Positions 11,665 through 27,829 of a stretch of DNA of 64,000 nt are shown here, piece after piece. The stretch is from Shimia thalassica. Its GTDB lineage: Bacteria; Pseudomonadota; Alphaproteobacteria; Rhodobacterales; Rhodobacteraceae. The position numbers and the translations under genes are program-made. The stretch covers positions 372,001 to 436,000 of the forward strand of contig NZ_CYTW01000002.1 of NCBI RefSeq assembly GCF_001458215.1. Direction: 5' to 3'. The notes beneath the pieces are model-generated. The model did not search any database. It was not told where the DNA came from and saw nothing but the letters and a program-made list of their open reading frames with translations. Every line of letters begins with the position of its first letter. Position 1 is the stretch's first letter.

Positions 11665-12846
11665 TTACACCTTGGTGATTGATGCACTTGAGGGATCGTA
11701 GACACATTTCGCAATGGATCCATCTTTAATACGATCCACAACCTCATCAATCACCGGGAGCGGCACTAAGAACCACTCTCGTGGCGTGACAGGCTTTCCG
11801 AAACGATCCTTGATTTGAATGTTTAAACGGGCAGGAGCCAAAACCTTATGAATCAGGTTTTCAAGTTTGCTGCGGTTGATGTTGTACAACTCATAGCGAG
11901 CGACAATCTCTACGTCTGCCAACAAGAAAGTTGGATCATTTTTGGCGTTAGTGATACGTCGCTCGACTTGGCCACCAGTCACTCCTATTTTGTGAAGGAC
12001 ATCACGGTGGGGGGAAATCTGTGGATCGTTTGATTTGGACCTCAAAACGTACACTGTTCCGCTAGCCAAGTCTTGATCAGACGTTTCAGTTCCAAAAAGA
12101 GGCCCGGCATTTGGATCTGTAATGCGACGGCCAGCATCATCTTGATGGAGCAACCTCTGTAATGAGCGCATCAGCATATTGCTCTCAGTTCCGTTATCAA
12201 AAATCACCCGTAGACGTGCGTCAGTTCTTCCTTGTGCATTTGAAAAAATCTCCCCCATTTCAGCGACATAAGCTTTCTGCCCGCCAACAATGAAATAGCT
12301 TCCAGATCGAATCTCCGACTTCAACTCAAAGGGTTTTGTTATTCGTATTCCATTTGAGATTTCGTTTTGAACGCGTTCAAACATTGGCTTGAACTCTTCA
12401 AAATCTTCACATCTATCTCGATTTCCAGCTTCTTCTGCCGCTTTCTTATCTGAAACTGATCGAACATGTTTTAGTTCGGTAATGCCAGAAGTTTTCGTGT
12501 CGATATCTACACCGAGTTCAGCCAACAAAGCATCGTCATCCATGCTGTCATCAACTTCGAGATTGACGGGCTCTCCTGATAGCAATCCCTGATAATCCAA
12601 CTCGGCAACCAAATTCCGGCATTCGGTTAAGCCCTTAATTTGCTCCAACCGCACAGCGTACAAACGCTCGAATATGTCTTTGTCACCTCCTGAGAGAGGT
12701 GGCCGCCTATGCTCATCCACAAATCGTTGAATTTCTTCAAAACCGGCGATTACTCTCTCGTCGCGAGCACTAAGTGTTTTCTTCTTTTCAGGCTCAGTGC
12801 TGACTCCCAATTGTTTTAGGATATCGAAATCGGATGGTTCAGACAT
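11665..12846 (-). CDS. GIY-YIG superfamily (T5orf172/MUG113-like) nuclease
   Basis: 393 residues. The last 130 or so residues contain GTVYVLRSKSND, then VLHKIGVTGGQVERRI, then YNINRSKLENLIHKVL and REWFLVPLP. This is the pattern of the T5orf172/MUG113 branch of GIY-YIG domains: VYV for GIY, KIG for YIG, a conserved Arg in the following helix, a Glu in KLENLIH, and a terminal EWF. The N-terminal 250 residues are charged and of no recognised family, with a coiled-coil-like start. The start overlaps the helicase stop by 8 bp, making it the last gene of the defence operon and the likeliest DNA-cutting subunit. Confidence 0.72.
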   Translation of the reverse strand: MSEPSDFDILKQLGVSTEPEKKKTLSARDERVIAGFEEIQRFVDEHRRPPLSGGDKDIFERLYAVRLEQIKGLTECRNLVAELDYQGLLSGEPVNLEVDDSMDDDALLAELGVDIDTKTSGITELKHVRSVSDKKAAEEAGNRDRCEDFEEFKPMFERVQNEISNGIRITKPFELKSEIRSGSYFIVGGQKAYVAEMGEIFSNAQGRTDARLRVIFDNGTESNMLMRSLQRLLHQDDAGRRITDPNAGPLFGTETSDQDLASGTVYVLRSKSNDPQISPHRDVLHKIGVTGGQVERRITNAKNDPTFLLADVEIVARYELYNINRSKLENLIHKVLAPARLNIQIKDRFGKPVTPREWFLVPLPVIDEVVDRIKDGSIAKCVYDPSSASITKV

Positions 12847-14884
12847 TTTTGGCTTCCGCTGCTTTTCGTTGGAGGAAGGCTATACCTTCTGCCATTCGTT
12901 TTTCCCATGCATCCGGAGATGTGATCGAAGGAAGGCGACCTCGTTCTTCTTTGAATTTCACGGCACGCAATGCGAGCTCGCGGGCTTCCTCGTGGCTCAA
13001 GTTGACCTTCTTGCTAGAAATAATAGCAGCCACCTGCTTTAGGCTTTCTTCGCTCATAGTCTTGGCGAGGATCGAATATGCCTCACCGAATGGATTGATC
13101 CGGTCAATCAAGTCGATATCGAGATCTCTAACATCCATGGCAAATTTCCGAACACCGTCAATAAGTGCCGTATTGGGCGACGGCTCATCACTGTCGTCAC
13201 CCAAAATAACCTTCTTGGCTTCTTGCGTGATATTCAACGCTGCGACGGCATGCTGACGTACTGCCTCTTGGTCCTCTTGATCCAATTCAGGATATCGATC
13301 TTTTACTATCTTACCCATCCGGACTTGTGTGAGTTCTTCCGGCACCATTTCTTCGTCGAACAACCCTCTCTCCACATTTGTCTTATCTTGGACAAAGGCA
13401 GTGATGACTTCGTTTAGATCTTCTTGGCAAACTCGCTTGGCCTCGTCTGAAGTAGGGGCGACCAATCCCCCCACTTCTATATGAAACTGGCCCTGCTCTT
13501 CATTGAAGCCAACGTTAGGCTTGTCAGTCTGATAACCAGTTTCACCGTAGTCGAAACTCTCTTGCGGTCCACTGGTTTGCGTTTTTGGCGTGAAGTTGAA
13601 CCGTGGCGCCAAAACTTGTTCCATTAGGAGACTCGCCGCAATGGCCTTCAGCGTGTCGTTGATCGCTTCTGTGACTGCTTCTTCGGAGGCGTCGGGTTCA
13701 GCAATAAGGTTCGTAAACCTTGCTCGTGTCTTTTCTTTGGCATCTCGAGTTGCACGGCCAATAATTTGAACGATTTCGGTCAAGCTGGCCCGATACCCCA
13801 CCGTCAAAGCATGCTCGCACCAAATCCAGTCAAAACCTTCTTTGGCCATACCAAGAGCAATAATAATATCGACATGGTCACGGTTGTTCTTTTGGGCCGG
13901 ATCCTTCAGAGCGGCAGAAACTTTATCCCGTTTGCTAGGTTCATCATCAACCAGGTCAGCGATCTTCAGAATGCGGCCATCTTCAGTTTTGACCAACTGG
14001 AAACCAGTGATTTTGTCAGTTCCCTGCCACTCTCCTAGTTCTTCAATGATGTGTTCAACTTCCTGATGTTTGTCCTTGGTGGATTCACGGGAGTTTACGT
14101 TCGGAATATGCAGGATCGTTTTCTCGTTGGGATCCAGCACTTTCAACAAATCATCCGCATAAGGACCTGAATAGAAGAAGTAACCGATATCGAGCGTTTT
14201 CAGGTAAGTGTAGCCGTTCAACTGCTCGTAATAGGTATAGGTAACCGTATCGAACTTGCTTTCGTCCTGAGGTGCCAGAACAGCCTCAGCATCGCCTCTA
14301 AAGTAAGACCCGGTCATCGCAACGACATGCACATTATCGCGAGCGATAAAGTCTCCCAGATGCGCCCCCAGTTTGTTGTCCGGGTTGGCAGACACGTGAT
14401 GGAATTCATCTACGGCGATAAGTCGACCATCAAAGGCTTCTATTCCAAACTTATCCACGGCAAATCGAAAAGTGGCATGCGTGCAGACCAATATCTTGTC
14501 ACTACTGTCGAGGAAGGCCCTTACAGATTTCACCTTCCCGCCATCTGTGCCTGGGCTGTTACAAAGATTCCATTTTGGCGGCACAATCCAATCCGACCAG
14601 AAACCAAATTTTGACAAGGGTTCATCGTTGAAACTGGAGCCAATCGACTTCTCAGGAACAACAATGATTGCCTGTTTCAGCCCCTGGTTTTCCAGTTTGT
14701 CCAACGCGATGAACATCAAGGCACGGCTTTTACCTGACGCTGGCGGGGACTTGATCAGCAGGTATTGTTCACCACGCTTCTCGTAGGCCCGTTCCTGCAT
14801 TGGGCGCATACCAAGTTCATTGGATTTGTTGGAACTACCGTTTTGAGCGTAGTTCACCGATACGGATGGGACGGTCTTAGTCAT
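12839..14884 (-). CDS. SF2 DEAD/DEAH-type helicase
   Basis: 681 residues from the ATG that overlaps the upstream gene's stop (ATGACTAA); a longer in-frame reading to 14968 lies inside that gene and is rejected. Motifs: Walker A-like SPPASGKSRAL (about residue 45), DEFHH (motif II, about 156), VAMTGSYF (motif III), ALGMAKEGFDW (motif V region) and IIGRATRDAKEKTR (motif VI, about 376). The C-terminal 250 residues are acidic and unrecognised. The architecture resembles the translocating helicases of restriction systems. It lies between the zinc-binding protein and the GIY-YIG nuclease and probably powers DNA remodelling or translocation. Confidence 0.82.
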   Translation of the reverse strand: MTKTVPSVSVNYAQNGSSNKSNELGMRPMQERAYEKRGEQYLLIKSPPASGKSRALMFIALDKLENQGLKQAIIVVPEKSIGSSFNDEPLSKFGFWSDWIVPPKWNLCNSPGTDGGKVKSVRAFLDSSDKILVCTHATFRFAVDKFGIEAFDGRLIAVDEFHHVSANPDNKLGAHLGDFIARDNVHVVAMTGSYFRGDAEAVLAPQDESKFDTVTYTYYEQLNGYTYLKTLDIGYFFYSGPYADDLLKVLDPNEKTILHIPNVNSRESTKDKHQEVEHIIEELGEWQGTDKITGFQLVKTEDGRILKIADLVDDEPSKRDKVSAALKDPAQKNNRDHVDIIIALGMAKEGFDWIWCEHALTVGYRASLTEIVQIIGRATRDAKEKTRARFTNLIAEPDASEEAVTEAINDTLKAIAASLLMEQVLAPRFNFTPKTQTSGPQESFDYGETGYQTDKPNVGFNEEQGQFHIEVGGLVAPTSDEAKRVCQEDLNEVITAFVQDKTNVERGLFDEEMVPEELTQVRMGKIVKDRYPELDQEDQEAVRQHAVAALNITQEAKKVILGDDSDEPSPNTALIDGVRKFAMDVRDLDIDLIDRINPFGEAYSILAKTMSEESLKQVAAIISSKKVNLSHEEARELALRAVKFKEERGRLPSITSPDAWEKRMAEGIAFLQRKAAEAKNV

Positions 14885-15488
14885 CTTCTTTCGGCTTTCT
14901 TTTGAGACGTTTGGACACTTTATTTTCGATAGGAACTGCTCTGCTTGTTGCTTTCTCAGGTTTGCCATCTGCTACCCACTGCGCTTGATGGAGAGCAATA
15001 CGTTCTTGGCGCCTTTTCTCATTCTGTTTTTGGTGTTTGGCTTCTGACAAGATATGTCGGTGCTTGGATTTGAACCTACGGGAGCGTTTTGCGAACCCCT
15101 CGTGTACCTTCTTGGTAGGGTTCTCTGGTGCGCTTCCCGGACCATCAACCTTTCCAACGCCAACACTTTGCTTTGTAACTACTCTTGCTGATGTAATGGG
15201 CTCTGTTTCCATCCGGCGCGACCACTTTGGGCAATCATGTTTAGGCCAAGGCACTCCGAGCTTGTCAAAGAATACTCGGCTGCCAGCATCATTTCGGTAG
15301 AAGAAGACCGTGGCTCCACACCCAAAGCACCGCATATTGTATGTAACAGCACCGTTGATCAACGCCCGGCCTTTGTTCCAAGAAAGCCTAAATTCAGATT
15401 TCGTATTTGAGCTCTCGAAATTGTGCTCTCTCACCGAACATGTTGTTCCGAACCGGTTAGTGCGGAAATGTTTGCGCCGAATAGCCAT
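14877..15488 (-). CDS. Putative zinc-binding protein of unknown function
   Basis: 203 residues. The middle contains YNMRCFGCGATVFFYRND, then a GSRVFFDKLGVPWPKHDC stretch. The CxxC plus HxC spacing suggests a small zinc ribbon, and the flanking GSxVFFDxLGxPWPKHxC stretch looks like a conserved motif. The C-terminal third is very basic (KSKHRHILSEAKHQKQNEKRR...; KRLKRKPKED), consistent with nucleic acid binding. ATG at 15488 directly follows the TAA of the 96-residue gene, with GGAGGGAG upstream. The stop overlaps the helicase start by 8 bp. No family name can be given. Confidence 0.68.
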   Translation of the reverse strand: MAIRRKHFRTNRFGTTCSVREHNFESSNTKSEFRLSWNKGRALINGAVTYNMRCFGCGATVFFYRNDAGSRVFFDKLGVPWPKHDCPKWSRRMETEPITSARVVTKQSVGVGKVDGPGSAPENPTKKVHEGFAKRSRRFKSKHRHILSEAKHQKQNEKRRQERIALHQAQWVADGKPEKATSRAVPIENKVSKRLKRKPKEDD

Positions 15489-15779
15489 TTACTCTCCCTC
15501 CATTGCCGCCATCTTTGAGAGAGGTCTATCAGGGTTCGGTGATTTTTCTGAAACGATGGCCAGCTCAGATGCGTTTTGGCAATTTATCGTTGCAATCATG
15601 GGTAAGAAGCGAGGTGAAGACCATTCACTCAAACGCTCCAACAAAAGTATTTTGCCGCGAACAATCATGTTCTTTGCGTCTATTTGAATTGGGAGTAGGC
15701 TGAGACTTTTCATCCAAATAGAACTCGCGATTGCGCCCCTCCTACTCATAAGGTCTATGCCTGAAGCCACCCACCTCAT
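15489..15779 (-). CDS. Small unknown protein inside the defence operon
   Basis: 96 residues beginning MRWVASGIDLMSRRGA and ending SKMAAMEGE. No recognised domain. Evidence that it is real is mainly positional: its ATG is 2 bp after the TAG of the nuclease-EVE gene, and its TAA is immediately followed by the next ATG. It fills the only gap that would otherwise exist in the operon. The Shine-Dalgarno for the next gene lies inside its last codons. Composition is mixed and neither strongly acidic nor membrane-like. Confidence 0.45.
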   Translation of the reverse strand: MRWVASGIDLMSRRGAIASSIWMKSLSLLPIQIDAKNMIVRGKILLLERLSEWSSPRFLPMIATINCQNASELAIVSEKSPNPDRPLSKMAAMEGE

Positions 15780-15781
15780 CC

Positions 15782-16825
15782 CTATTCACCGACGCCGAAT
15801 TGCTCGACCAAGAAATCAACGGTTTCTTGCTGCCGGATTTTACACACAACATTCTGATTAGAAAAAATTCCACTGAATGTGTGGGCATTGTTGATATCTA
15901 CGGTAGATTTCCATTCCACCCCGACAACGTAAGCACATTTTTCAGGATCTTCCTGACTTCCCAATAGATAGTCACGAGGCAACGCGTCGGTGAGCTTTTG
16001 TCCGTCGAGTAGTTCGTATTCTGAGGCCGGTGTTTTTGTTGCCGTCACCAAGCCATATCCCAAGTATCCGTTTTTCTTTTGGTAATAGAATACTTTGTCC
16101 CCAACGGACAACTTATCCAGTTTTCCTGTATAGTGCTGACCACCACTAGCCGTGAAGAAGCCATAGTCCCGTAATTCGGCCCAAGGGCGGTCTTCCTCTG
16201 CGCCACCAGTGACATAGTAATAGCCTGACCATGGAGCCCGAACCTTCTTTTCAGATCGATCCTTTACCTCCTCTTGATCAAGCAAGTTTTCAGTAGTTAG
16301 CCACTCACGACCTTCAGCCTCAAAAATGTTGAAGAAGCTAGCGTTGATTCCGACATCGTGTTCTTCGGACAAGTACTCAATAATTCGACGTGTTCCTTCA
16401 TCTACCGAGCTCGCCACCACAAACATCTGGTGAGAGGTATTAAGAGATTGGGGAAGACTGGCCCCGAATTTTTCACGATAGGCAGTCGATAGGGGAACAC
16501 TCATCACATTCTGGGAAATGCGATGAACATCGCTTGTGGTTAGTCGGCATACCCAGGATGCATAATCCAATACCTGCGCAACAATATCTCTTGGGCTTTT
16601 GTCACGCTTTAGTTCGACAATGATGAGGTTTCCGCTCTCATCCATAGCTAGGACATCAATGTACTTGCCATGGTCGGTGGCAATTTGGCGTCCTATGACA
16701 AACCCATCAACACCAATCAATGAAAGATCCTCAGAGACCCATTTTTCAATCTTTTCTTCAAGATCCAAGCCCTTGCGCTTGGCCTCGATCAAGCTGTTTC
16801 CGCTGATGTTAAATAATCGGGTCAT
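15782..16825 (-). CDS. PDDEXK nuclease fused to a PUA/EVE-like domain
   Basis: 347 residues. Residues about 15-110 resemble the NucS/DUF91-type PDDEXK fold: EEKIEKWVSEDLSLIG, then GKYIDVLAMDESGNLIIVELKRDKSPRDIVAQVLDYASW, with D and the ExK (VELKRD) in the expected order. Residues about 200-345 read WSGYYYVTGGAEEDRPW, then YGFFTASGG, LSVGDKVFYYQ and GYLGYGLVTA, which I read as a PUA/EVE-like domain; such domains bind modified bases. The combination suggests a modification-sensing nuclease. Its start overlaps the upstream stop (ATGA). Confidence 0.65.
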   Translation of the reverse strand: MTRLFNISGNSLIEAKRKGLDLEEKIEKWVSEDLSLIGVDGFVIGRQIATDHGKYIDVLAMDESGNLIIVELKRDKSPRDIVAQVLDYASWVCRLTTSDVHRISQNVMSVPLSTAYREKFGASLPQSLNTSHQMFVVASSVDEGTRRIIEYLSEEHDVGINASFFNIFEAEGREWLTTENLLDQEEVKDRSEKKVRAPWSGYYYVTGGAEEDRPWAELRDYGFFTASGGQHYTGKLDKLSVGDKVFYYQKKNGYLGYGLVTATKTPASEYELLDGQKLTDALPRDYLLGSQEDPEKCAYVVGVEWKSTVDINNAHTFSGIFSNQNVVCKIRQQETVDFLVEQFGVGE

Positions 16826-17694
16826 TGTAATATCTTTCGCTGATCGAAACGCTGGATGAAAAGTCTGGCCGTAATCAATGTAATCTGAAGTCTAAAAGTC
16901 GCGTCTTCTTGTTCTGACAATCCTGCATGACTTCCCGCTGGATGCATCCGACTCCACAATCCCTGAACAAACTGGGGTTTTTGCAAATTTTCATTCCACT
17001 CGTTGTAGTCAGATAATAAAAATGGCGGTGTGAGCTTTCCCAAAAACTCTCGTTTCAGTGTGGTTTCGTCCTTACCCTGATAACCCAACCTGTCAGCGAT
17101 CTCATTCAAATAGCTTTCGAAAAAACTACGCAATTGGGCGTTTGATGCCTCCCAGTCTCCGCGTTGAAAGGCACTAACTGCCTGCCTTAGATGCTCTTGC
17201 GCCGTGGCAAATCCATGCTTTTTCAGCAAGGCTTCCAATTCATTATCGGCTTCCCGATTGTCTAGGCCTTCAATGCCCTCAGGTAGCATTCGTTTCAAAG
17301 CTCTCACGGTAACTTGTCTCGGGGCATCTTCAAACAAAGATGGGCGCCCTGATGGATCTGGTTTTTTTTGGTCCGTTATGACAAATCCATCGAAACGAAG
17401 TCCTGCGACAAACTTATGCCATGTCTGGTCATAACCCACGTGATCCGGTGCGAGCAAAGCCAACTCAACGAGCCCTCGTTGCAAGTTCATTTGACCGTTT
17501 TCTGTCCAGACAACTGGGTTATGTGTCAGAGCAATTTTTGCCCAACTACTGACACGGGCGTTCTTACTAGTGGTAGCAACTCCATACTGCTCTAAGTCCC
17601 ACTGAACTTCTAAAACTTTCATGTCGTCATTTGAATGCGACGCTGCCACAACTTCGACTGCGGCGACAATCGTAAGGCGGTTAAACTCGTTCAT
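16822..17694 (-). CDS. HEPN/Abi-like protein of the defence operon
   Basis: 290 residues. The C-terminal half (about 160-285) is helical: QEHLRQAVSAFQRGDWEASNAQLRSFFESYLNEIADRL, then GSHAGLSEQEDATFRLQITLITARLFIQRF. This resembles the C-terminal helical domain seen in abortive-infection and HEPN-like proteins, although no clear RxxxxH motif is present. The N-terminal half is unrecognised. ATGA overlaps with the methyltransferase stop upstream and with the nuclease start downstream show tight coupling. A toxin or regulatory subunit is possible, but function is unknown. Confidence 0.5.
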   Translation of the reverse strand: MNEFNRLTIVAAVEVVAASHSNDDMKVLEVQWDLEQYGVATTSKNARVSSWAKIALTHNPVVWTENGQMNLQRGLVELALLAPDHVGYDQTWHKFVAGLRFDGFVITDQKKPDPSGRPSLFEDAPRQVTVRALKRMLPEGIEGLDNREADNELEALLKKHGFATAQEHLRQAVSAFQRGDWEASNAQLRSFFESYLNEIADRLGYQGKDETTLKREFLGKLTPPFLLSDYNEWNENLQKPQFVQGLWSRMHPAGSHAGLSEQEDATFRLQITLITARLFIQRFDQRKILQ

Positions 17695-20432
17695 GCGGCC
17701 CCCACCTTGGTTGTCATCTTTGTGTAGAGGTCGAACAGCTTTTCCAGCCGTTCGGTATCATTGCGGAAACGGCGGCCGATGTAGATGCGCTCCAGGACTT
17801 CGTCGTTGCGGTCATGGGCGGCACGCAGGTTGTCTGGCATTTTTTCAGGGTCATAGAGCTCAGCAATAGTTGCCGGAAAATGCGCCTCGCGGGCCAGCAG
17901 GATATCCTCAGCACAGCGGGTTAGGTCATCTTTGTTTTTCTGGGTGAGTTTGGGGACGGGGAATGTGTTCCAGCCGAGTGTGTTGGAGTAGGAAAAGTCG
18001 GTTCTCATTCGAACGCAAACTGCCCCGATCCATACCCAGTGCAGTCTTGATGCAACCAGTGACAGGTTCCAGATTTCCGTATCGCACATGGTAAAGTTTC
18101 TATCCCCAACGATAGTACTTTCGTCATAGAAGCCGACCGGAAGATACTCTCGGTTCTCTGAACTAACACGAGGCACCACGACGCAATTCTCTTTGCTTAT
18201 ACCTTGGATTTGCCGAAACTTATGCGCGTACTTTGCATAGTCTCGTGTCGAACTAGCCTTGCTGTCAAGCCGCATTTTTCGAACGCTCTCGATGCGATTT
18301 TCGATGTCTGGTATAGTAAGGGCGTCAACTAAATCCTCATCCTCGATCCAAATGCAAAAGCGCGACAGCCCTCTAATCAACTCTTGAGCGCCGATGAATT
18401 TTTTGACAAATTTTTCGGCCTTGCTTGATGAAGCCAAAAGGAGAGACTTTTCATCCGAATTCAGAAGTAAATGACCACCGTCTGTAGGCATATTGCCTCG
18501 TATCATGAACCCTCTTTTATCTAGCGCATTGGTCAGGGGCTTTACGATGATTTTGGGTCCAGAAATTAGGTAAGCGTTAATGCTGGAAACAACTTGAACA
18601 CTTGTTTCTCCAGACTTGTCCTCATGAAACAGAGTTTTGCTGGTCGATGGCAGGGGTGATAGCCCCACGATCACCACTGTCACTCCAGCATTTTTGCTGG
18701 CCAGATTTGCCCACTTAAACGACGTTCGAGCAAAGTTAATGTCAACTCCGGCTTCATAAAGTATAGGCCAAACAATTGGTACTTGCTCACCTTGACAAAT
18801 AGAATTGGTGCTAACAAATGCAAACGCACCTGTGGAATGATTCAGAAAATCCGCTGCGAGTTTAAACCAGCATGCTACTAGGTCTAATGACCGCCACGTT
18901 TTTGTATGGGTTTCAAAAACATTTCTTACATCAGATTTTTGCGATTCAGTCTGCTTTGAACTGCCCACATAAGGGGGATTTCCGCAGATATAGGTTTCCC
19001 CTCCTTCATTCTCGAAATCGATCTCAGCCTGATCCAATGGTGTGTTGAATAGGTCATCCCCTTTGAGTTTCACCTTTGCCCCTGTTGGAGGGCAGACACT
19101 CAACCAATCCAAACGCAAGGCATTGCCGCACGTGATCCAGTTCATCGCATTCAATGGTAGGAATTCGGCCAAGGCTTCTTTCTGACCACGGTACAGTTGA
19201 TCGCATTGGAACTCGGCAATGATCAGGGCAAGGCGTGCAATCTCGGCCGGAAACTCCCGTAGCTCGATCCCGCGAAAATTGGTCAGCTTTATCTCGGTGC
19301 GGGCATCGTCTTCGCCACGACGTTTGTTGATCTCAAACTCAAGGACACGTATTTCTTTGTAAGCAATGACCAAGAAGTTTCCCGATCCGCAAGCAGGGTC
19401 AAACACCCGGATTTTGGCCATGCGATCACGAAGGTTTTTGAGCTTTGCACGATTGTCACCGGCCTCTTCCAGCCTGGTTCGTAGGTCATCCAAAAACAGC
19501 GGGTTTAGAACCTTCAGGATATTGGGAACAGAGGTGTAGTGCATCCCCAAGGACCCACGCTCTTCATCATCGGCCACAGCCTGGATCATGGATCCAAAGA
19601 TATCTGGATTGATCTTGGTCCAATCCAAAGACCCGATATGCATCAGGTACGAACGTGCAATCTTACTGAACACAGGCACATCAGTGCTGCCCGAGAAGAG
19701 ACCACCATTCACATATGGGAACACCTGAGCCCACCGTGGAAGGCTGGCATTGTTCTTGGTGTTCATCGCCTCGAAGAGGGTGCTGATGATCTCATGTGTG
19801 TTCGATGAATCTGAAGTACTCATCTTTGTAATAGTGTCAGTGAACAAGTTTTCTCCACTGAAGATCTCAGTGTCTTCAGCAAAAAAGCAGAAAATCAGAC
19901 GAGCCATAAAATGGTTCATTTCTGATCGGCGTTCGTTGGTGCCCCAATCAGGGTTGTGCTTTAGCAGTTCTACATACAGCCGGTTCAGGCGACTGGTCGC
20001 CCGAATATCAAAGGCACTTTCGCGGATCTGTTTAACTGTGCTGATACCGGCAAGGGGTAGGAAGAATCCGAAATGATCGGGGAAGTCTTTGTATTCACAG
20101 GCGACAACTTCGCCACTGGTCAAATCAGCGGACTGAAAATCTGCTCCATCAGTGACGACGACAAACTTTACCTTGCCCTTTTGTGTCGCAGAGCTGTTTT
20201 GAAGGGCTGTGAGCGTCTCTGTGACCCTTCCATGGGGGCACGTCGCAATATGGACGTTGTTACGCTGTAGGACGCCCCCTTGGTCCGACTTGTTGGTGTC
20301 ACCTTTCCGAAGGCGGTCTAAAGTGGCCTTCTTGGCTCCAAATGACTGAATGAACTGATATGGAAACTCATCCGCATCAAAGGGTTGCTCGGCCAATTCT
20401 GAAATGGCTTCTTCGATTTCAATGGCGTTCAT
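17691..20432 (-). CDS. MmeI-like class I adenine-N6 DNA methyltransferase
   Basis: 913 residues with the MmeI-type order: N-terminal domain (about 1-130), helical spacer (about 140-320), methyltransferase with SAM motif I DPACGSGNFL (about 342) and catalytic NPPY (about 482), a target-recognition region (about 600-780) and a C-terminal tail. In true MmeI-type enzymes the N-terminal domain carries a D...ExK nuclease. The equivalent place here reads VLQRNNVHIATCPHGRVTETLTAL, without acidic catalytic residues, so cleavage is probably done by another subunit. It is the first gene of the operon; ATGA overlap with the next gene. It likely marks host DNA and supplies specificity. Confidence 0.82.
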   Translation of the reverse strand: MNAIEIEEAISELAEQPFDADEFPYQFIQSFGAKKATLDRLRKGDTNKSDQGGVLQRNNVHIATCPHGRVTETLTALQNSSATQKGKVKFVVVTDGADFQSADLTSGEVVACEYKDFPDHFGFFLPLAGISTVKQIRESAFDIRATSRLNRLYVELLKHNPDWGTNERRSEMNHFMARLIFCFFAEDTEIFSGENLFTDTITKMSTSDSSNTHEIISTLFEAMNTKNNASLPRWAQVFPYVNGGLFSGSTDVPVFSKIARSYLMHIGSLDWTKINPDIFGSMIQAVADDEERGSLGMHYTSVPNILKVLNPLFLDDLRTRLEEAGDNRAKLKNLRDRMAKIRVFDPACGSGNFLVIAYKEIRVLEFEINKRRGEDDARTEIKLTNFRGIELREFPAEIARLALIIAEFQCDQLYRGQKEALAEFLPLNAMNWITCGNALRLDWLSVCPPTGAKVKLKGDDLFNTPLDQAEIDFENEGGETYICGNPPYVGSSKQTESQKSDVRNVFETHTKTWRSLDLVACWFKLAADFLNHSTGAFAFVSTNSICQGEQVPIVWPILYEAGVDINFARTSFKWANLASKNAGVTVVIVGLSPLPSTSKTLFHEDKSGETSVQVVSSINAYLISGPKIIVKPLTNALDKRGFMIRGNMPTDGGHLLLNSDEKSLLLASSSKAEKFVKKFIGAQELIRGLSRFCIWIEDEDLVDALTIPDIENRIESVRKMRLDSKASSTRDYAKYAHKFRQIQGISKENCVVVPRVSSENREYLPVGFYDESTIVGDRNFTMCDTEIWNLSLVASRLHWVWIGAVCVRMRTDFSYSNTLGWNTFPVPKLTQKNKDDLTRCAEDILLAREAHFPATIAELYDPEKMPDNLRAAHDRNDEVLERIYIGRRFRNDTERLEKLFDLYTKMTTKVGAA

Positions 20433-20827: not shown

Positions 20828-23821
20828 CTAGATTTGGTACTTGAGCCGTCGCTGTACGAAAGCGGGTTTCGTTCCTTCAAGAACTTTCACTACATTTGCA
20901 TTGGTTCGAGGTTCTTCGATAGCACCAGATTCGTAAGAAAACTTGTAGTTCTTGTGCTTTTGTAGCTGCACATAGATGATCTGTTCGGCGTCCGCCCCGA
21001 CAGCCAGGTTGGGATTGTGTGTCACGAGTACGACCTGGCGGTTCTTTTTTGCGGTACGGATACACTTGGCAAGGACAGAGAAGATACTGTCGTTATCTAG
21101 GTTGTCTTCAGCCTGATCGATAATGAGAGGCGTGTTTTCCATGTCCAAATGGAGATAGAATACAAGTAGAAGAAGACCTTTCTCTCCCGGTGAGAGTTGA
21201 GTGAGGTTTTTGTTTCCAAGCCGAAGTTCGTACATCGTTTCTATGAAATCGAGTGAAAACAGGAAGTCACAGAATTCCTTGCCCGTTTTGTTTTGCCTGA
21301 TTTGCTTGGCAACGTCATGTTCCTCGACTTTTTGGAGGACCGTCTCGCAAAAACTGTAGACTGACTCAAAATCCCCCCAGTCCACTTCGGATACGAATTC
21401 TCGAAGGGCCTTTTCACCATCTGCCTGGAATGGCCCCCGAACCGCCTTGCTGATATACTCGAAAAACAGGTCGGAAAAGTTGGAAGTAAGGACAAAGGAT
21501 GCTTCAAGGCTCACATGGAAATTGTCTTCCTTAAAGATGCTTAGCTTGTCCTCGACGCTTTGCTTGAGCTCAGTGTAGAATGAGAGAACCAATTCTTTTG
21601 CCCTAAAAATGCTCTTCGAAATGGCCTTCCGCTCAGTCTCTAGCGCTGAAATCTCAGTTTCGAGCTCTTCCTCAATGTATGCGATCTGGTTTTTCGTATG
21701 ACGGATCGTTTTGGGGGCGGGCTGCTCCTCATCCCCGAGAAGAGTAGTCTTTTGCTTTTCGAGCTCAGCTATCTTGTGGAGATAGGACTGATACCGCTTA
21801 CCGGGAGCACTCAGTTGTTCTCTGAAGGAGGAAATCTTCTGTTTCAGCGCCTCCATCACCGAGTTAACGTCAGGGATGCTGTCGTAGTCACTCGCTTTCC
21901 CAAACCCTTGGTCCTCGGGGAACTGAAGCTTACTGTCTACCGAAAGTGCAGCGATTTCACCCTTGATCGAACTGTTAAGCTGAATGAGCGATGAGGTGTC
22001 GAAGCTGAGAGTGATGATTTCATCTGCGTTGAGACCAAGTTCCTTGCAAAGGGCAACGATACTCTCTTTTTCGCTTTGGACATAAACCCTTAGTTCAGTG
22101 AGCTTAATGGTGACGCGCTTGAGCTTTTCTGAGCGCTCTTTCGCATTTGCAAGTTGCCCGGTCAGTTCCTTTCTTCGCGCCTCAAGTTCAACAAGCAACG
22201 CGCTAAACGCTTCTATCTCCCTGCTGATAGCTTGCTGTTTGGGGCTTTCTTCTGAAGGCTTTTGGACCTCAGCCGGTGTGGAGGCTTCTAGCGCTTTGAA
22301 TTCGGTCTTGAGCTTTTCAAGCTCCCTTTGCAGTGTGTCCTTGAATTCTGGCTGACTGCGGCTCTTTAGTTCGTCCAGCCGATGATGTAGCTCACGAAGC
22401 TTCTGTTTTAGGTCGCTAACCTTGTCTCGGCTCTCTTGGGTTTTGAGCTCTTCGAGTTCCTTGAAGCTGCTCTGGTTTAGACGGTCGGTCTCCTCAACAT
22501 GTGAAAACACAACGTTTTCGATCTCGGTCTGAAACTGGCGAACTTCTTGAATCTCATTGGTCAGCGTTTCAAAGTAGTTCTGAGGGAGGTATTTAACCTT
22601 TTCAGGGTCTGTGAACCGAACGCCCTCGCTGAGGTTCTTTGAAACTGAATTTCCATCCGCCCAAGTGAGCGTTGCATCGAAGTTTTCTGCGTATCCTCGC
22701 TGTTTGAATTTTTTGTTTCCGCGAGAATTTGCAAGGAACGAAAAGCTATCTTCTGCTCGGGAATCTCCTAGAAGTCCGAGAATGTCGGCTAGAGCGCTTT
22801 TTCCACTTCCTTTGTTCCCAATGACAGCTGTGAGCTCGGGATTGAGCGGAACATCGACCTTCTTGAACCACAATCCATTCTCGTTTCCGTAGGTCGGAAC
22901 TTTTTCTATTCTCAAATGATCAATGAACTTCGTTGCCTCTGAGCTCCTCCGCTGCAAAACAGGAGGTTTCTCTCCGATAAACACCCGAGCTTCTGGCTCA
23001 AAGAGCGTTTGCTTTAGGCCTTCAAAGCTGGGGTTCGCCTTGATCCAGGTCGCTTCAAAGCCGGTGACATCTCCGCTGAGACGCTCTAGGTCATCAAAGC
23101 TGTGAGCATCACTAGCATCAAAAACGGGCTTTTTCTTTGCCTCGCCTTCTTCGTATCGCTCGGCATCCAAGAAATACCCGGTGCTGTCGCTGCCACCAAA
23201 GAAGCCATGCGCTGTCTTATCGATTTCTTCAGCAATGCTGATTTTTCGCGGTGAACCCGTATCCTGCGACTTCATCCCGTCATTCTTTGCAGGAAATATC
23301 AGGAGATAGGGTTTCGCGTCACCAAAGGTCTTTGTCAGTGCGTCCCGAATACCTTTGAGGCTCACTGTTGCCTGATCGTAATTTCCCTTGGAGGCGAGAT
23401 CAGCACAGGAAACTTCGACACCGTTTCCATCAGTGAGATGAGTTTTGAGATTTTGAAGAAATGCCGCAATCTTTTCCTGGGGGCAAACGTCCGAATTGTT
23501 GTCAAAAACAACATGCATGTCAGGGCTGTTGCCTTCTTTTCCGATAGCATCAGAAAGACGGAGTTCAATATTAGGAAAGAACACCTTTTTCCCATCTGGG
23601 AAACGCTCATGGTACTTCTCGACGGCAAGGAAGTAGTTTTCGCAGCAAAAATAGTCAGTGAGACCAAAGACCTGAACATCCGAGTCTTCGAGGGCGTCCA
23701 AGTAGGTATCCCATGCGTCCCCATCTTTGGTTTTTTAATCGTTTGCCAACTTGGTTTCAGGAGTATGGAGATGGAGGTCCCAACGTCGCCAAAGGGATAC
23801 TTGCTTAGAATTGGCTGTCAT
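20828..23821 (-). pseudogene. TrlF/Ppl-like PHP-SMC ATPase, broken by an in-frame stop
   Basis: A long open frame encodes a TrlF-family protein: PHP phosphoesterase-like N-terminus, long coiled coils (about 380-760 of the full frame) and an SMC/RecN-like ATPase with Walker A AVIGNKGSGKSALAD, signature LSPGEKGLLLLVF and Walker B PLIIDQAEDNLDN. The natural start is ATG 23821, giving MTANSKQVSLWRRWDLHLHT and on to LAND, then TAA at 23737-23735, then KTKDGDAWDTYLDALEDSD in the same frame. The stop therefore splits the PHP domain after its HxH motif. Restart at TTG 23701 would give 957 residues lacking HxH. PHP-SMC proteins are reported as anti-phage factors. Either the gene is inactive, or the base is a sequencing error. 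Confidence 0.8.
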
Positions 23822-24271: not shown

Positions 24272-26452
24272 TCAAAAATGGTTAAGCAAGTTCACAGTTC
24301 GCGTGCTGGCAAGTGACCCACGTTCAATAGCACGCTGAATGATCTCCTGATCAGGACAGCATACAACAAGGTTTTGCCGTGCTCGGGTTGCCCCAGTATA
24401 CAGTAATGTCTTGTCCAGCATCCTTTCGACTGCGCGAGATGCAGGAAGGGCCAGAATGACATTTTCCCACTGGGATCCTTGGCTTTTGTGGATCGTTATC
24501 GCAAACCCAAGTTCCAGTTTAGAAATGACTTCATCTGTCAGTTGGATTTCATCCCCGTCAATTATTGCTAGACCGTGGCTGCCGTCTAGTGGCTCATCGT
24601 AGGCTCTTGAAATTGTCCCCAGGAAACCGTTTCTGAGGCCAAGCGCGTAGTCGTTTTTGGTGACGAGTATAGCATCGCCTTCATGTAGCCGGCTCCCTTT
24701 GTCGGTGACAAAGTGCTGTAAGTTTCCGTCTTCGTCAGGGTATTGGATGCCCCTTCGGCAACTCCCGTAACCGGCTTGGATCACCTTGTTGATGTTTGTG
24801 ACTCCATCAATTCCCATGTCGGTTGGACACAAAACGATGCAGTCGTCGCGACCACCCAAATTCTCAAAAAGTTCTTTGATAGTGGTGGGATCCGTGGTCC
24901 CAAGGATAACGCAATCTGCTTTTGGTGATTCTGCGAAGGTTGGTAGCCGACAAGTGGTCTCCGAGTTGCGGACGGCGGTGGCAAATCTATGTATGCCGCT
25001 ATCTTCTCCCTGCCTCTTTACCGCTCTTAAATGAAATCTCGGGATGTCAGATTCCATAATTGCGTGAAAAACGAGGCCCATGCCAACTGGCGGCAATTGC
25101 TCGACGTCACCGACGAAAATGTACCGCGTGGCGCTGGGGAGGAGTGACATCAGATTGTACATGGAGACAATGTCGACCATGCTTGCTTCATCGATAACGA
25201 CTATCAGTTGATCAGGTCGTCGCTCTGGCGCCATTCTCTTCAGTTCGATAATATACTTTGAGATAGTATGTGCGGGCCGATTGGTCGCCTCTGACATTCT
25301 GGAAGCCGCTCGACCTGAGAGCGCTAGCTGAACTACTTCGGAACCCAAACTGACTTTGTCGATAATGGAGAGTACGGCATTCAGAATGGTCGTCTTACCT
25401 GTGCCTGCACCGCCCGACATAGCGCAAACTTTCGACTTAACCGCTCCGATAACCGCCTGTCGCTGCTCGCTAGTCAGTTCGAAAGAAATGCCAGCTTCGA
25501 ACCTAGTCAAAAAGACAGAAATCTCTCGGTCAGAAAGTGCCGTTTCCCAGCCAGCCAGAAGTGATCCTGCGCCATTGGGCCGGTTGAATGCCGACTTCAA
25601 CGTATGAGCGACGAAGTGTTCCAACAAAAACGGACCTTCCAATTGGAGTCCTGCCGGTGTTTGGGCCAACACTCTACGATCAGCAGCTGATTTTAGAATG
25701 GCTTGAGGATTAAGCCTCCTCCGGTTTGCCTCAGCGTGAAATGTTGAAACAGGTATTGCCGTCGAGCCAGTCTTCCGCGTGTATTTCTGGACAATATCCC
25801 TTACTTGAGCAGCTTGATAAACGTTGCTGGTTCTGGATATTCCTATGCTTTCAGCAACTTCACAACATTTGTTGAACGGTACTCCAAACTGAAGCAATAC
25901 AAAGGGATCAGCTTCCAGGTATTCGACAGTTTTGTCTTTCCACATACCAGAGAGGCTGTGAGCTATTCTGGCTGGAAAGTTTTTCTCTGCCAGCCAATTG
26001 ATCGCTTCAAGCATTTCGTCTCTGGGAAACGTCTTCAAAATTTGGCGGGCAGCATTGCTGGGTATGCCAAGGTCTAGAAGTGCATCGAAATCTTCGTTCT
26101 CGATAAGATCTAGAAGGTTTGGATTCCGTGCAAGTCGCCCAGCTTTAACTTCACCGATGCCGTCAATGTTCTTCTGAAGCCACGTTTCGATTAGGCTCGT
26201 GTTGGGCTTTATCAATTCGGCTTCGTCGACGTCGATCCGATCTTCCGTGACGGTGTAGCCATTTACTTCGAAACTAGCCTCATTTTGGGGGCCGCTGATG
26301 CGCCAAACATTTCCTGGCGTTGCTACGTCTTTGACGGCCCGTGGGAAACGAACAGAGAGGCCCTTTGATGAGTGGATGATGAAACCCTCATCAGACAGCC
26401 TCTTGGCGCTTAGAAGGCCGTTCAGTCGCGCTTTATGAATTTGGACAAGCAC
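24272..26452 (-). CDS. RecD2-like SF1B DNA helicase
   Basis: 726 residues with GTG start. The N-terminal part has an OB-like and helix-hairpin-helix-like region (DGIGEVKAGRLARNPNLLDLI, about 95-115). The helicase core has Walker A MSGGAGTGKTTIL (about 345), LSGRAASRMSEAT, Walker B VVIDEASMVD, GDVEQLPPVGMG, and the C-terminal TIHKSQGSQWENVIL and LLYTGATRARQ motifs. This is the RecD/RecD2/TraI-type 5'-3' helicase layout without RecBC partners. It is the last gene of the recombinase operon, 8 bp after the GIY-YIG gene. It may process DNA during island transfer or act in defence. Confidence 0.85.
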   Translation of the reverse strand: MLVQIHKARLNGLLSAKRLSDEGFIIHSSKGLSVRFPRAVKDVATPGNVWRISGPQNEASFEVNGYTVTEDRIDVDEAELIKPNTSLIETWLQKNIDGIGEVKAGRLARNPNLLDLIENEDFDALLDLGIPSNAARQILKTFPRDEMLEAINWLAEKNFPARIAHSLSGMWKDKTVEYLEADPFVLLQFGVPFNKCCEVAESIGISRTSNVYQAAQVRDIVQKYTRKTGSTAIPVSTFHAEANRRRLNPQAILKSAADRRVLAQTPAGLQLEGPFLLEHFVAHTLKSAFNRPNGAGSLLAGWETALSDREISVFLTRFEAGISFELTSEQRQAVIGAVKSKVCAMSGGAGTGKTTILNAVLSIIDKVSLGSEVVQLALSGRAASRMSEATNRPAHTISKYIIELKRMAPERRPDQLIVVIDEASMVDIVSMYNLMSLLPSATRYIFVGDVEQLPPVGMGLVFHAIMESDIPRFHLRAVKRQGEDSGIHRFATAVRNSETTCRLPTFAESPKADCVILGTTDPTTIKELFENLGGRDDCIVLCPTDMGIDGVTNINKVIQAGYGSCRRGIQYPDEDGNLQHFVTDKGSRLHEGDAILVTKNDYALGLRNGFLGTISRAYDEPLDGSHGLAIIDGDEIQLTDEVISKLELGFAITIHKSQGSQWENVILALPASRAVERMLDKTLLYTGATRARQNLVVCCPDQEIIQRAIERGSLASTRTVNLLNHF

Positions 26453-26460
26453 TTAGTAAC

Positions 26461-26922
26461 CTAGATCTTACCGTGTTGACCAAAGGCAGGCTGCATCTGC
26501 TCTGCAAAACACGCTTCGATGATTTGTAATAGGTTGGGGTTGATGTCTGGGAACAAGTAAACATCGATTTCGTAATCGGCCGTGCCCCATTCATTTAGAC
26601 GAAGAGCGCTGGTTGTATCCGATGCTTTTACCAGATGTTCTGCCAGACGTTTGCGAATATCGTCCTTATGTCTGCCTACGTACAGAATATGGTTAGGTTT
26701 CTGGTTGAGAGGCGGGCAGTTTAAATTCTCATTGTTTTCACGATAAACATTGTACTCGTTAAAGGCTGCCTGAGGTTCCCCCTTGACCTGCTTGATTATG
26801 TAAACACCGCGACTGCCCTTAAGTTCTTCGGGAATGCCATGCTTGACGCTGAAAGTTATCGGCTTTGTCTGCTTTGAACTCTCAAGATCTCTAATGAGAA
26901 GGTCTATGAAATCCCAATTCAT
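26461..26922 (-). CDS. GIY-YIG domain protein of the recombinase operon
   Basis: 153 residues. GSRGVYIIKQVKG (GVY for GIY), then NHILYVGRHKDDIRKRLAEHL (YVG for YIG, followed by Arg), and IIEACFAEQMQPAFGQHG with a Glu at the expected catalytic place. It is close to a bare GIY-YIG nuclease domain. Its ATG overlaps the upstream stop (ATGA) and it is followed by the RecD2-like helicase, so the two may act together on DNA ends or branched intermediates. Confidence 0.7.
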   Translation of the reverse strand: MNWDFIDLLIRDLESSKQTKPITFSVKHGIPEELKGSRGVYIIKQVKGEPQAAFNEYNVYRENNENLNCPPLNQKPNHILYVGRHKDDIRKRLAEHLVKASDTTSALRLNEWGTADYEIDVYLFPDINPNLLQIIEACFAEQMQPAFGQHGKI

Positions 26923-27396: not shown

Positions 27397-27828
27397 CTAC
27401 CTTTTTGCTCTGTTGGTTTTGGGAAGCGGTTTGTTCAGCTGTTCATTCAGAGTAACCATGTTCACACCGGGCATCCTGTAAAGGTTGTATTGCCAGCGTG
27501 CGAACTGCTCGACGTACAGATCCCGTTCCCGCTGCAAGCGAGCGACTTTTGCCTCGAGTTTTTCTATTTCTAATAATGCCGCTTCAAGGGTATGATCTAC
27601 GGTCTCTCCGGCCTTGGTCGCCTTTGAAGATTTCAATTCAGCTTTTCTAGCACGGAATGCTTCAACAAGCTGCGGGTAGCTCAATAGCGTATGTCTGGAG
27701 ATACTCCTTACACCAATTTGTTTGGCTATCATTTCACCAACAAGTGGCCACGTCATCTTTCCCTGCCACCCATCCAGCTCGTTGAGGATGCGGGTCATAG
27801 CTTCTTCATTGATCAGCCTGGTCTTCAT
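27397..27828 (-). CDS. ginD: GinD/TnpC-like small recombination protein
   Basis: 143 residues. WPLVGEMIAKQIGVRSISRHTLLSYPQLVEAFRARKAEL reads as a helix-turn-helix region, followed by a coiled coil (ALLEIEKLEAKVARLQRERDLYVEQFARW). In GInt islands a fourth small HTH gene follows the three recombinases, and Tn554 TnpC plays a comparable role in orienting transposition. ATG lies 1 bp after the third recombinase's stop. The symbol is given by position and architecture, not by a search. Confidence 0.6.
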   Translation of the reverse strand: MKTRLINEEAMTRILNELDGWQGKMTWPLVGEMIAKQIGVRSISRHTLLSYPQLVEAFRARKAELKSSKATKAGETVDHTLEAALLEIEKLEAKVARLQRERDLYVEQFARWQYNLYRMPGVNMVTLNEQLNKPLPKTNRAKR

Positions 27829-27829
27829 T

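What the first reader, a model, noticed from the sequence alone, without database searches (positions are those of the whole stretch)
11665..20432. Seven-gene overlapping operon: candidate multi-subunit restriction-like defence system
Seen: seven minus-strand genes whose six junctions are 4-8 bp overlaps, a direct abutment, or a 2-bp gap. Order: adenine methyltransferase, HEPN/Abi-like protein, PDDEXK-EVE-like fusion, 96-residue unknown, zinc-binding unknown, SF2 helicase, GIY-YIG nuclease. Known: methyltransferase plus helicase plus nuclease is the recurring logic of R-M, DISARM and BREX, but I do not recognise this exact set as BREX (no PglZ/BrxC), DISARM (no DrmB/PLD) or a type I system (no HsdS/HsdR). 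Inference: the methyltransferase gives recognition and self-marking, the helicase moves on DNA, the GIY-YIG protein cuts, and the EVE fusion may check modified bases.
Basis: partly seen in the sequence, partly recalled or inferred. Interest (0 to 1): 0.87.

Follow-up and report, generated by a model that had tools for sequence, protein, structure and literature searches.

The report
Restriction operon with swappable cargo slot
A known but poorly understood bacterial three-gene set that marks, unwinds and probably cuts DNA carries, at one fixed point inside its operon, an exchangeable slot that different bacteria fill with different toxin-like or nuclease genes, which suggests a first line of defence with interchangeable back-up weapons.

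Summary
The sequence reading is right: seven minus-strand ORFs at 11665-20432 overlap, abut or lie 2 bp apart. They are not one seven-subunit machine. Three (MmeI-family methyltransferase lacking MmeI's nuclease motif, SF2 helicase, T5orf172/GIY-YIG protein) are the DnmA-YeeB-YeeC set known from Bacillus subtilis. The other four lie in a variable slot between methyltransferase and helicase. In 98 loci the slot is empty in 44 and filled in 54; in 42 of 54 the first cargo ORF overlaps the methyltransferase stop by 4 bp. Eleven cargo families recur in three or more loci (RhuM, AlbA_2, HEPN-like, PLD-like, YhcG, BrnT and others). The helicase/GIY-YIG junction holds no insert of 100 bp or more (0 of 102). 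Loci with near-identical helicases carry different cargo. Here the slot holds a tentative HEPN-like protein, a NucS-EVE protein, a doubtful 96-residue ORF and a zinc-site protein. All lies on a ~21.5-kb island absent from three congeners. Most likely: a type I-like restriction core with interchangeable second-line effectors; guarding is inferred. The core and the HEPN-plus-R-M principle are known; ten library searches showed me no description of the slot.

The parts
17691..20432 (-). MmeI-family adenine DNA methyltransferase (DnmA/YeeA-like) with target recognition domain; nuclease motif of MmeI not found
   Evidence: All five MmeI Pfam domains; aligns to MmeI 5hr4 in two stretches, 83-447 and 481-908; D and E columns of the D..ExK motif of a nuclease-bearing relative are gaps in 84 of 84 trio methylases incl. 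this one; a chance-like D-x9-EYK at 103-115 is not conserved
16822..17694 (-). HEPN-like protein (tentative), first cargo gene of the slot; 4-bp overlap with the methyltransferase stop; R249-x6-H256
   Evidence: A2: H256 in 10 of 10, R249 in 8 of 10; AlphaFold model pLDDT 80; Foldseek: no hit at E<=0.001, 11 of the 50 rows shown have HEPN in the title, best of these E 0.57; no Pfam match
15782..16825 (-). NucS-like PD-(D/E)XK nuclease domain fused to an EVE-like domain (PADLOC PDC-S11)
   Evidence: PDC-S11 387.7 bits; profile hits to NucS 2vld (E 3.7e-5) and EndoMS 5gke (E 0.01); best of five models (pLDDT 72.5) matches NucS, and THYN1 with 5mC DNA, at E<=0.001; D57, E71, K73 invariant in 5 and in 8 aligned relatives
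15489..15779 (-). ORF96, doubtful gene
   Evidence: Open frame, no coding signal, no homologue found
14877..15488 (-). Putative zinc-site protein (CxxC...HxC read by eye), last cargo gene; 8-bp overlap with the helicase start
   Evidence: Partial homologues in 7 other genomes of 292 searched, best 49% over residues 4-116; coding signal weak
14885..17690 (-). Variable cargo slot between methyltransferase and helicase (2806 bp here)
   Evidence: Empty in 44 and filled in 54 of 98 loci
12839..14884 (-). SF2 helicase (YeeB-like)
11665..12846 (-). T5orf172/GIY-YIG protein (YeeC-like)
   Evidence: T5orf172 and MUG113 above cut-off; Y266, K286, G288, R297, E329 identical in 100 of 100 relatives longer than 350 aa
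11422..32974 (.). Low-G+C island between pepT and ssb; exact ends not determined
   Evidence: Composition; pepT and ssb adjacent in 3 of 3 same-genus genomes fetched; integrase-family genes at 29970-32839

Best explanation
This is a DnmA-YeeB-YeeC type operon on a mobile island. Inferred mechanism of the core: the MmeI-like protein supplies target recognition and adenine methylation of the host; lacking a nuclease of its own, it directs the SF2 helicase and the GIY-YIG protein, which move on and cut DNA without the mark (type I-like logic). Shown here: the junction between methyltransferase and helicase is a fixed slot in which cargo genes, mostly overlapping the methyltransferase stop, are swapped. 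Inferred for the cargo: second-line effectors. The HEPN-like protein would be an RNase held silent by the restriction complex and released when a phage blocks it (as PrrC with EcoprrI), and the NucS-EVE protein would cut phage DNA whose modified bases defeat the first nuclease.
For: Domains. MmeI nuclease D and E columns absent in 84 of 84. Trio conserved: GIY-YIG 102 of 103, upstream methylase 98 of 103. Slot: 44 empty, 54 filled of 98; 42 of 54 start on a 4-bp overlap; no insert of 100 bp or more at the next junction in 102. Turnover: 23 changes empty/filled and 47 of first cargo family on a quick helicase tree; related loci whose first ~1.4-1.5 kb of helicase are 92-96% identical carry different or no cargo. 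dN/dS in 7 pairs 0.02-0.08 helicase, 0.05-0.13 GIY-YIG; HEPN-like 0.11 in 1 pair. Representatives of cargo families match RhuM, AlbA_2, YhcG, PDDEXK_4, four match PADLOC phage-defence candidates PDC-S05, S02, S67, S26; BrnT above cut-off in 3 loci with no BrnA-sized space. NucS-EVE relatives follow a type I specificity gene by 10 bp in 4 of 8 viral loci looked at, two of these four confirmed by Pfam; in L201 the order N6-methylase/specificity fusion, HEPN-type protein, NucS-EVE recurs with 4-bp overlaps. HEPN-like relatives lie in a type I plus GmrSD cluster.
Against: In B. subtilis the same trio affected neither plasmid transformation nor three phages and was called a relic (passages). HEPN fold support is weak; the NucS-EVE model is the best of five that differ (pLDDT 72.5, 61.0, 52.9, 47.6, 39.1). 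BrnA genes exist elsewhere in all 3 BrnT genomes. Same-strand close genes also occur upstream of the methylase (15 of 83) and downstream of GIY-YIG (26 of 93). Slot state follows the tree more than shuffled labels do (20 changes against a shuffled mean of 30.3 with the first labels), so turnover is frequent but not free. Nothing here shows contact or silencing, and 44 of 98 loci do without cargo.
Confidence: 0.6

Rival explanations
1. Cargo genes are independent selfish or defence genes that only share the operon's expression; the slot is a tolerated landing place without functional coupling to the restriction core.
For: Cargo families are unlike each other and also live elsewhere: NucS-EVE without the trio, HEPN-like beside other genes; BrnA available in trans; 44 of 98 loci lack cargo; close same-strand neighbours also occur at the outer ends of the trio.
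Against: Within the trio one junction only; repeated refilling with the same families and a 4-bp overlap in 42 of 54; BrnT without BrnA in the slot.
Confidence: 0.27
2. The core is a decayed restriction system in which only the methyltransferase still matters (orphan methylation), as proposed for B. subtilis.
For: Phage and transformation tests in B. subtilis were negative (passages).
Against: dN/dS of helicase 0.02-0.08 and GIY-YIG 0.05-0.13 in 7 pairs; five key-looking GIY-YIG residues invariant in 100 of 100; PMC9973331 cites a study in which Vibrio crassostreae mutants became sensitive to some phages (passage).
Confidence: 0.1
3. All seven genes form one obligate multi-subunit defence machine.
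For: Tight junctions across all seven ORFs.
Against: EVE, ORF96 and zinc relatives in none of the other 102 loci; HEPN-like in 7 of 103; ORF96 without coding signal.
Confidence: 0.03

Closest known systems
DnmA-YeeB-YeeC of Bacillus subtilis (PMC7261158, PMC9973331; passages seen)
   Same: MmeI-like methylase lacking the nuclease motif, followed by SF2 helicase and T5orf172/GIY-YIG gene, in a low-G+C acquired region
   Different: Here four ORFs stand between methylase and helicase; the passages I saw do not describe a slot and mention only an 'Uncharacterized protein family' up- or downstream of dnmA in other bacteria
EcoprrI-PrrC and HEPN genes linked to R-M operons (PMC3710099, PMC12707154; passages seen)
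   Same: HEPN RNase gene inside an R-M operon as second line of defence; RhuM-like genes named in such neighbourhoods; at least 16 HEPN clades linked to R-M systems
   Different: PrrC is an ABC-ATPase-HEPN fusion in a type Ic system; here a 290-residue, tentatively HEPN-like protein in an MmeI-type operon that takes many unrelated cargo families at one junction
MmeI (PDB 5hr4)
   Same: All five MmeI domains by Pfam
   Different: D..ExK nuclease motif not found; separate helicase and GIY-YIG genes
EVE-PD(D/E)XK proteins, predicted type IV-like restriction (PMC7641849; passages seen) / PADLOC PDC-S11
   Same: Nuclease plus EVE-like reader; relatives often near R-M genes
   Different: Lies as cargo inside a DnmA-type operon

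Membership tests
DnmA-YeeB-YeeC | MmeI-family adenine methylase without PD-ExK nuclease motif | tested here: met
   Judged against one nuclease-bearing relative (L170). K column: T 55, R 21, K 3 of 84; one row (L098) has a DxK nearby; the loose pattern D-x7-13-[ED]xK occurs in 7 of 84, window included (103-115), but E and K there coincide in only 2 of 84 and the place lies beyond the L170 motif
DnmA-YeeB-YeeC | SF2 helicase, then T5orf172/GIY-YIG gene, downstream in that order | tested here: met
   helicase and GIY-YIG overlap by 8 bp
DnmA-YeeB-YeeC | Helicase immediately downstream of the methylase (the commonest position in PMC9973331) | tested here: not met
   Four ORFs intervene; 54 of 98 loci have inserts, so contiguity is common but does not define the family
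DnmA-YeeB-YeeC | Sequence homology to the B. subtilis proteins themselves | not tested
   Those sequences were not fetched; MmeI_N rings in two of 14 named controls, one being B. subtilis
DnmA-YeeB-YeeC | m6A at an asymmetric site | not testable with these tools
   Needs a long-read methylome
Type IIL (MmeI) | Own N-terminal PD-ExK nuclease | tested here: not met
BREX | PglZ and BrxC | tested here: not met
   Not among the listed hits of the 9 proteins scanned; PglX models hit the methylase only weakly (up to 31.5 bits)
DISARM | DrmB and DrmC | tested here: not met
   Not among the listed hits of the 9 proteins; a DISARM methylase model (DrmMI, 117 bits) hits the methylase far below the IIG model (957.7 bits)
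Type I R-M | HsdR, HsdM, HsdS | tested here: not met
   No HsdR_N, HsdM_N or Methylase_S hit in the 9 proteins; N6_Mtase and ResIII hits are generic
HEPN superfamily | HEPN helical fold | tested here: inconclusive
   Model pLDDT 80; HEPN entries among the weak hits, best E 0.57
HEPN superfamily | RX4-6H motif | tested here: met
   R249-x6-H256; R in 8 of 10, H in 10 of 10; that this is the HEPN motif is a reading by eye
PrrC-like guarded effector | Silenced by the R-M complex and released on its inhibition | not testable with these tools
   Needs genetics or biochemistry

The most novel reading that the evidence does not exclude
The DnmA-YeeB-YeeC complex is a general guard: it serves as antitoxin for whichever toxin or nuclease occupies the slot, so that disabling restriction (by a phage anti-restriction protein or by loss of the operon) releases a lineage-specific killer. 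The slot is a plug-in socket for abortive effectors, including BrnT without BrnA beside it.
Probability: 0.22. Interest if true: 0.8.

Novelty: new variant of a known kind. Interest (0 to 1): 0.58.

Why it matters
A fixed, fast-turning cargo slot is a reason to think it live, a way to find new effectors (four recurring cargo families gave no Pfam, PADLOC or NCBIfam match for the representative scanned), and a direct test of whether an R-M complex can guard unrelated effectors.

Tried and rejected
Rejected: one seven-subunit system; BREX, DISARM, type I and active type IIL membership. Rejected: my first slot count of 47 filled, 7 'gap', 44 empty; those seven loci hold ORFs that my picker had hidden behind opposite-strand ORFs. 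A recount with the helicase start fixed by alignment gave 54 filled and 44 empty. One of the 54 (L036) holds only a low-complexity 83-residue ORF.

Led nowhere: scan of viral contigs with the NucS-EVE protein alone (none), superseded by the alignment scan (13 loci, 8 looked at). PDB sequence search with the helicase: none at E<=0.01. Promoter scan at chance (9 found, 9.6 expected); terminators 17 against 10.4 +/- 3.6. No repeat marking the island ends: each of two 401-bp stretches was searched for repeats within itself, not against the other. NCBIfam on ten cargo proteins: one weak DrmC hit.

Literature: ten searches of an open-licence library listed no paper that I could see to describe a cargo slot in DnmA-type operons. 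Five papers were looked into by passages only; most subscription papers are not held. This is no proof of absence.

Limits of counts: the 103 loci are the window, 2 chosen because they carry the HEPN-like gene (L009, L010), 20 of the 23 genomes with a hit in an even phylum sample of 398 (own genome, G462 and G577 left out) and the best 80 of 553, hence biased to close relatives. In the even sample 8 of 20 slots are filled, in the best-80 set 44 of 76 that have an upstream methylase. 5 of 103 were dropped from slot counts for want of an upstream methylase; in all 5 the helicase starts within 1.1 kb of the end of the sequence held. Cargo family names rest on one representative each (all three for BrnT); members were grouped by blastp. 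The tree is a quick one with long branches in the far group and 29 of 95 weak inner branches. The 16 viral and 214 plasmid records with the helicase were not used in the slot counts.
Full report
Observation. The region lies in a low-G+C stretch from about 11.4 to 33 kb (about 0.48 against 0.54-0.59 on either side). The ssb flank was found in 20 other genomes of the genus; in the three of these that I fetched, pepT and ssb stand side by side, whereas here about 21.5 kb separates them. The island also encodes a TrlF-family ATPase, a RecD2-like helicase and integrase-family genes.

Identity of the parts. The 913-residue protein has all five MmeI domains and aligns with MmeI of PDB 5hr4 in two stretches, 83-447 and 481-908. 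In an alignment with one relative that keeps a D..ExK motif (L170), the D and E columns are gaps in 84 of 84 methylases of this family, window included; the K column holds K in 3 of 84, and one row has a DxK nearby. A loose D-x7-13-[ED]xK pattern turns up in 7 of 84, window included (residues 103-115), but its E and K coincide in 2 of 84 and L170 has neither there, so I take it for chance. PADLOC's top label, type IIG restriction enzyme (957.7 bits), is thus probably misleading. The helicase has DEAD and ResIII matches and the last gene T5orf172; Y266, K286, G288, R297 and E329 of the latter are identical in 100 of 100 relatives; that these are GIY-YIG catalytic positions is recalled. The 347-residue protein is PADLOC's PDC-S11. 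Its N-terminal part matches NucS. The best of five models (pLDDT 72.5, the others 61.0 to 39.1, pTM 0.44) has eight PDB matches at E<=0.001: NucS/EndoMS, MJECL36, PH1033 and THYN1, one of them with 5-methylcytosine DNA; that MJECL36 and PH1033 are EVE proteins is recalled. By sequence EVE was seen in 1 of 5 relatives, at E 0.014. The 290-residue protein has no Pfam match; its model (pLDDT 80) has no PDB match at E<=0.001, but 11 of the 50 rows shown are titled HEPN (best E 0.57), and it has R-x6-H. HEPN remains tentative. ORF96 is doubtful.

Known core. The trio methylase-helicase-GIY-YIG is the DnmA-YeeB-YeeC set. In the passages I read, PMC7261158 and PMC9973331 report m6A at GACGAG by DnmA, no effect on plasmid transformation (dnmA deletion) or on three phages (single deletions) in B. 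subtilis, conservation of the trio elsewhere, and, citing a study that I did not read, raised phage sensitivity of Vibrio crassostreae mutants. The MmeI-family paper that they cite for these relatives is not held.

The slot. I gathered 103 helicase-centred loci. GIY-YIG follows in 102 and a methylase precedes in 98. In those 98 the stretch between methylase stop and helicase start is -8 to 40 bp in 44 and at least 120 bp in 54. The next junction, helicase to GIY-YIG, has no insert of 100 bp or more in 102 loci. In 42 of 54 filled slots the first cargo ORF begins at -4, overlapping the methylase stop by 4 bp, usually as ATGA. Families in three or more loci: RhuM 9, fam139 9, AlbA_2 7 (four of them with a 62-residue companion ORF, a twelfth family), HEPN-like 6, Abi277 6, PLD-like 6, fam260 5, PDC-S67 4, fam325 4, YhcG 3, BrnT 3. 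Names come from one representative each, BrnT from all three; PLD-like rests on a sub-threshold Pfam hit; fam and Abi277 are my labels, and the RNxxxH likeness of Abi277 to HEPN is read by eye. RhuM, YhcG, PDDEXK_4 and PDC-S67 representatives match PADLOC phage-defence candidates. BrnT in L112, L117 and L118 leaves 46-158 bp on either side within the slot, too little for BrnA (68-position model), though BrnA genes occur elsewhere in all three genomes.

Turnover. On a quick helicase tree the state empty/filled needs 23 changes and the first cargo family 47. With the earlier labels the supported branches alone forced 13 changes for empty, and the labels were more clustered than shuffled ones (20 against a mean of 30.3): frequent exchange, not randomness. 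Pairs show it directly, measured on about the first 1.4-1.5 kb of the helicase: L059 (fam325) and L063 (HEPN-like) 94% DNA identity, L064 (Abi277) and L097 (empty) 95.7%, L066 (fam139) and L068 (empty) 92%; L010 (HEPN-like + AlbA_2) and L077 (fam139 + AlbA_2) are 97% identical over AlbA_2 gene and helicase together. In these pairs homology stops at or within about 50 bp of the methylase stop and resumes near the helicase start; a stretch of the methylase that overlaps the target recognition domain fails to align as well (occupants corrected). In seven pairs dN/dS is 0.02-0.08 for the helicase, 0.05-0.13 for GIY-YIG and 0.11-0.26 for the methylase; HEPN-like 0.11 in the one pair available. As a check, close same-strand genes also stand upstream of the methylase in 15 of 83 and downstream of GIY-YIG in 26 of 93: coupling as such is not unique to the slot, but insertion inside the trio is confined to it in these loci.

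Cargo elsewhere. Of 13 viral-collection loci with a NucS-EVE relative I looked at eight: in L203, L204, L206 and L207 the gene lies 10 bp behind an HsdS-like gene (L203 and L207 scanned and confirmed as Methylase_S). Of four plasmid loci looked at (of 92 records), two lie beside genes annotated as DNA methyltransferase and specificity subunit. In L201 the order is a fused N6-methylase/specificity gene, a HEPN-type protein (HEPN_RiboL-PSP, E 0.0046, below cut-off; RNKIAHP), then NucS-EVE, with 4-bp overlaps: the same kind of cargo, in the same order, in another R-M operon. HEPN-like relatives in L011 stand among HsdR-, HsdS-, HsdM- and GmrSD-type genes. Roseobacter plasmids carry the trio with HEPN-like and AlbA_2 cargo (AlbA_2 scanned in L152) beside type IV secretion genes, preceded by a coupled VapC gene.

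Mechanism. Shown: gene content, absence of the MmeI nuclease motif, slot position and turnover, purifying selection. Inferred: restriction of unmarked DNA by helicase and GIY-YIG under methylase guidance; HEPN-like protein as a guarded RNase; NucS-EVE as a cutter of modified DNA. The guarding idea rests on PrrC-EcoprrI and on the survey of HEPN genes linked to R-M operons (passages of PMC3710099 and PMC12707154). The main rival is that cargo merely rides along.

Verdict. Core known, second-line principle known; the fixed, fast-turning slot inside DnmA-type operons, and this cargo set, are the new part as far as my searches go. A new variant of a known kind, with a testable guarding hypothesis.

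Noticed in passing
window 20828-23701: TrlF-family AAA-like ATPase (602 bits) upstream of the operon on the same strand; in L091 a TrlF-like gene lies downstream of the trio.
   Followed up: no
window 24272-26922: RecD2-like helicase followed by a small protein with a weak, sub-threshold GIY-YIG match, same strand: a possible second defence pair on the island.
   Followed up: no
window 27397-32839: Four close-set genes, two of them integrase-family and a 715-residue one without a Pfam hit; Tn554-like in layout (recalled). In L108 relatives of two of them stand directly upstream of the trio.
   Followed up: partly
L152 2583-6004 and L193 4586-8004: A VapC toxin gene overlaps the methylase start by 4 bp on two Roseobacter plasmids, beside type IV secretion genes.
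   Followed up: no
L201 1-3550: Fused N6-methylase/specificity gene, HEPN-type protein and NucS-EVE with 4-bp overlaps on a viral-collection contig: same cargo order as the window in another R-M operon.
   Followed up: partly
L039 and L043 slots (about 7 kb): The two largest slots share seven small-gene families in partly different order, including an XRE/HigA-like and a metallopeptidase-like protein (read by eye).
   Followed up: no
locus pairs: A methylase stretch overlapping the target recognition domain fails to align while helicases are 86-97% identical, so specificity seems to be exchanged as well as cargo.
   Followed up: no
L054, L093, L131: Methylase read as two ORFs in these loci, possibly broken genes or sequencing frameshifts.
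   Followed up: no
viral contigs L154-L169: Sixteen IMG/VR contigs encode a relative of the helicase, so the trio may travel on phages or integrated elements.
   Followed up: no
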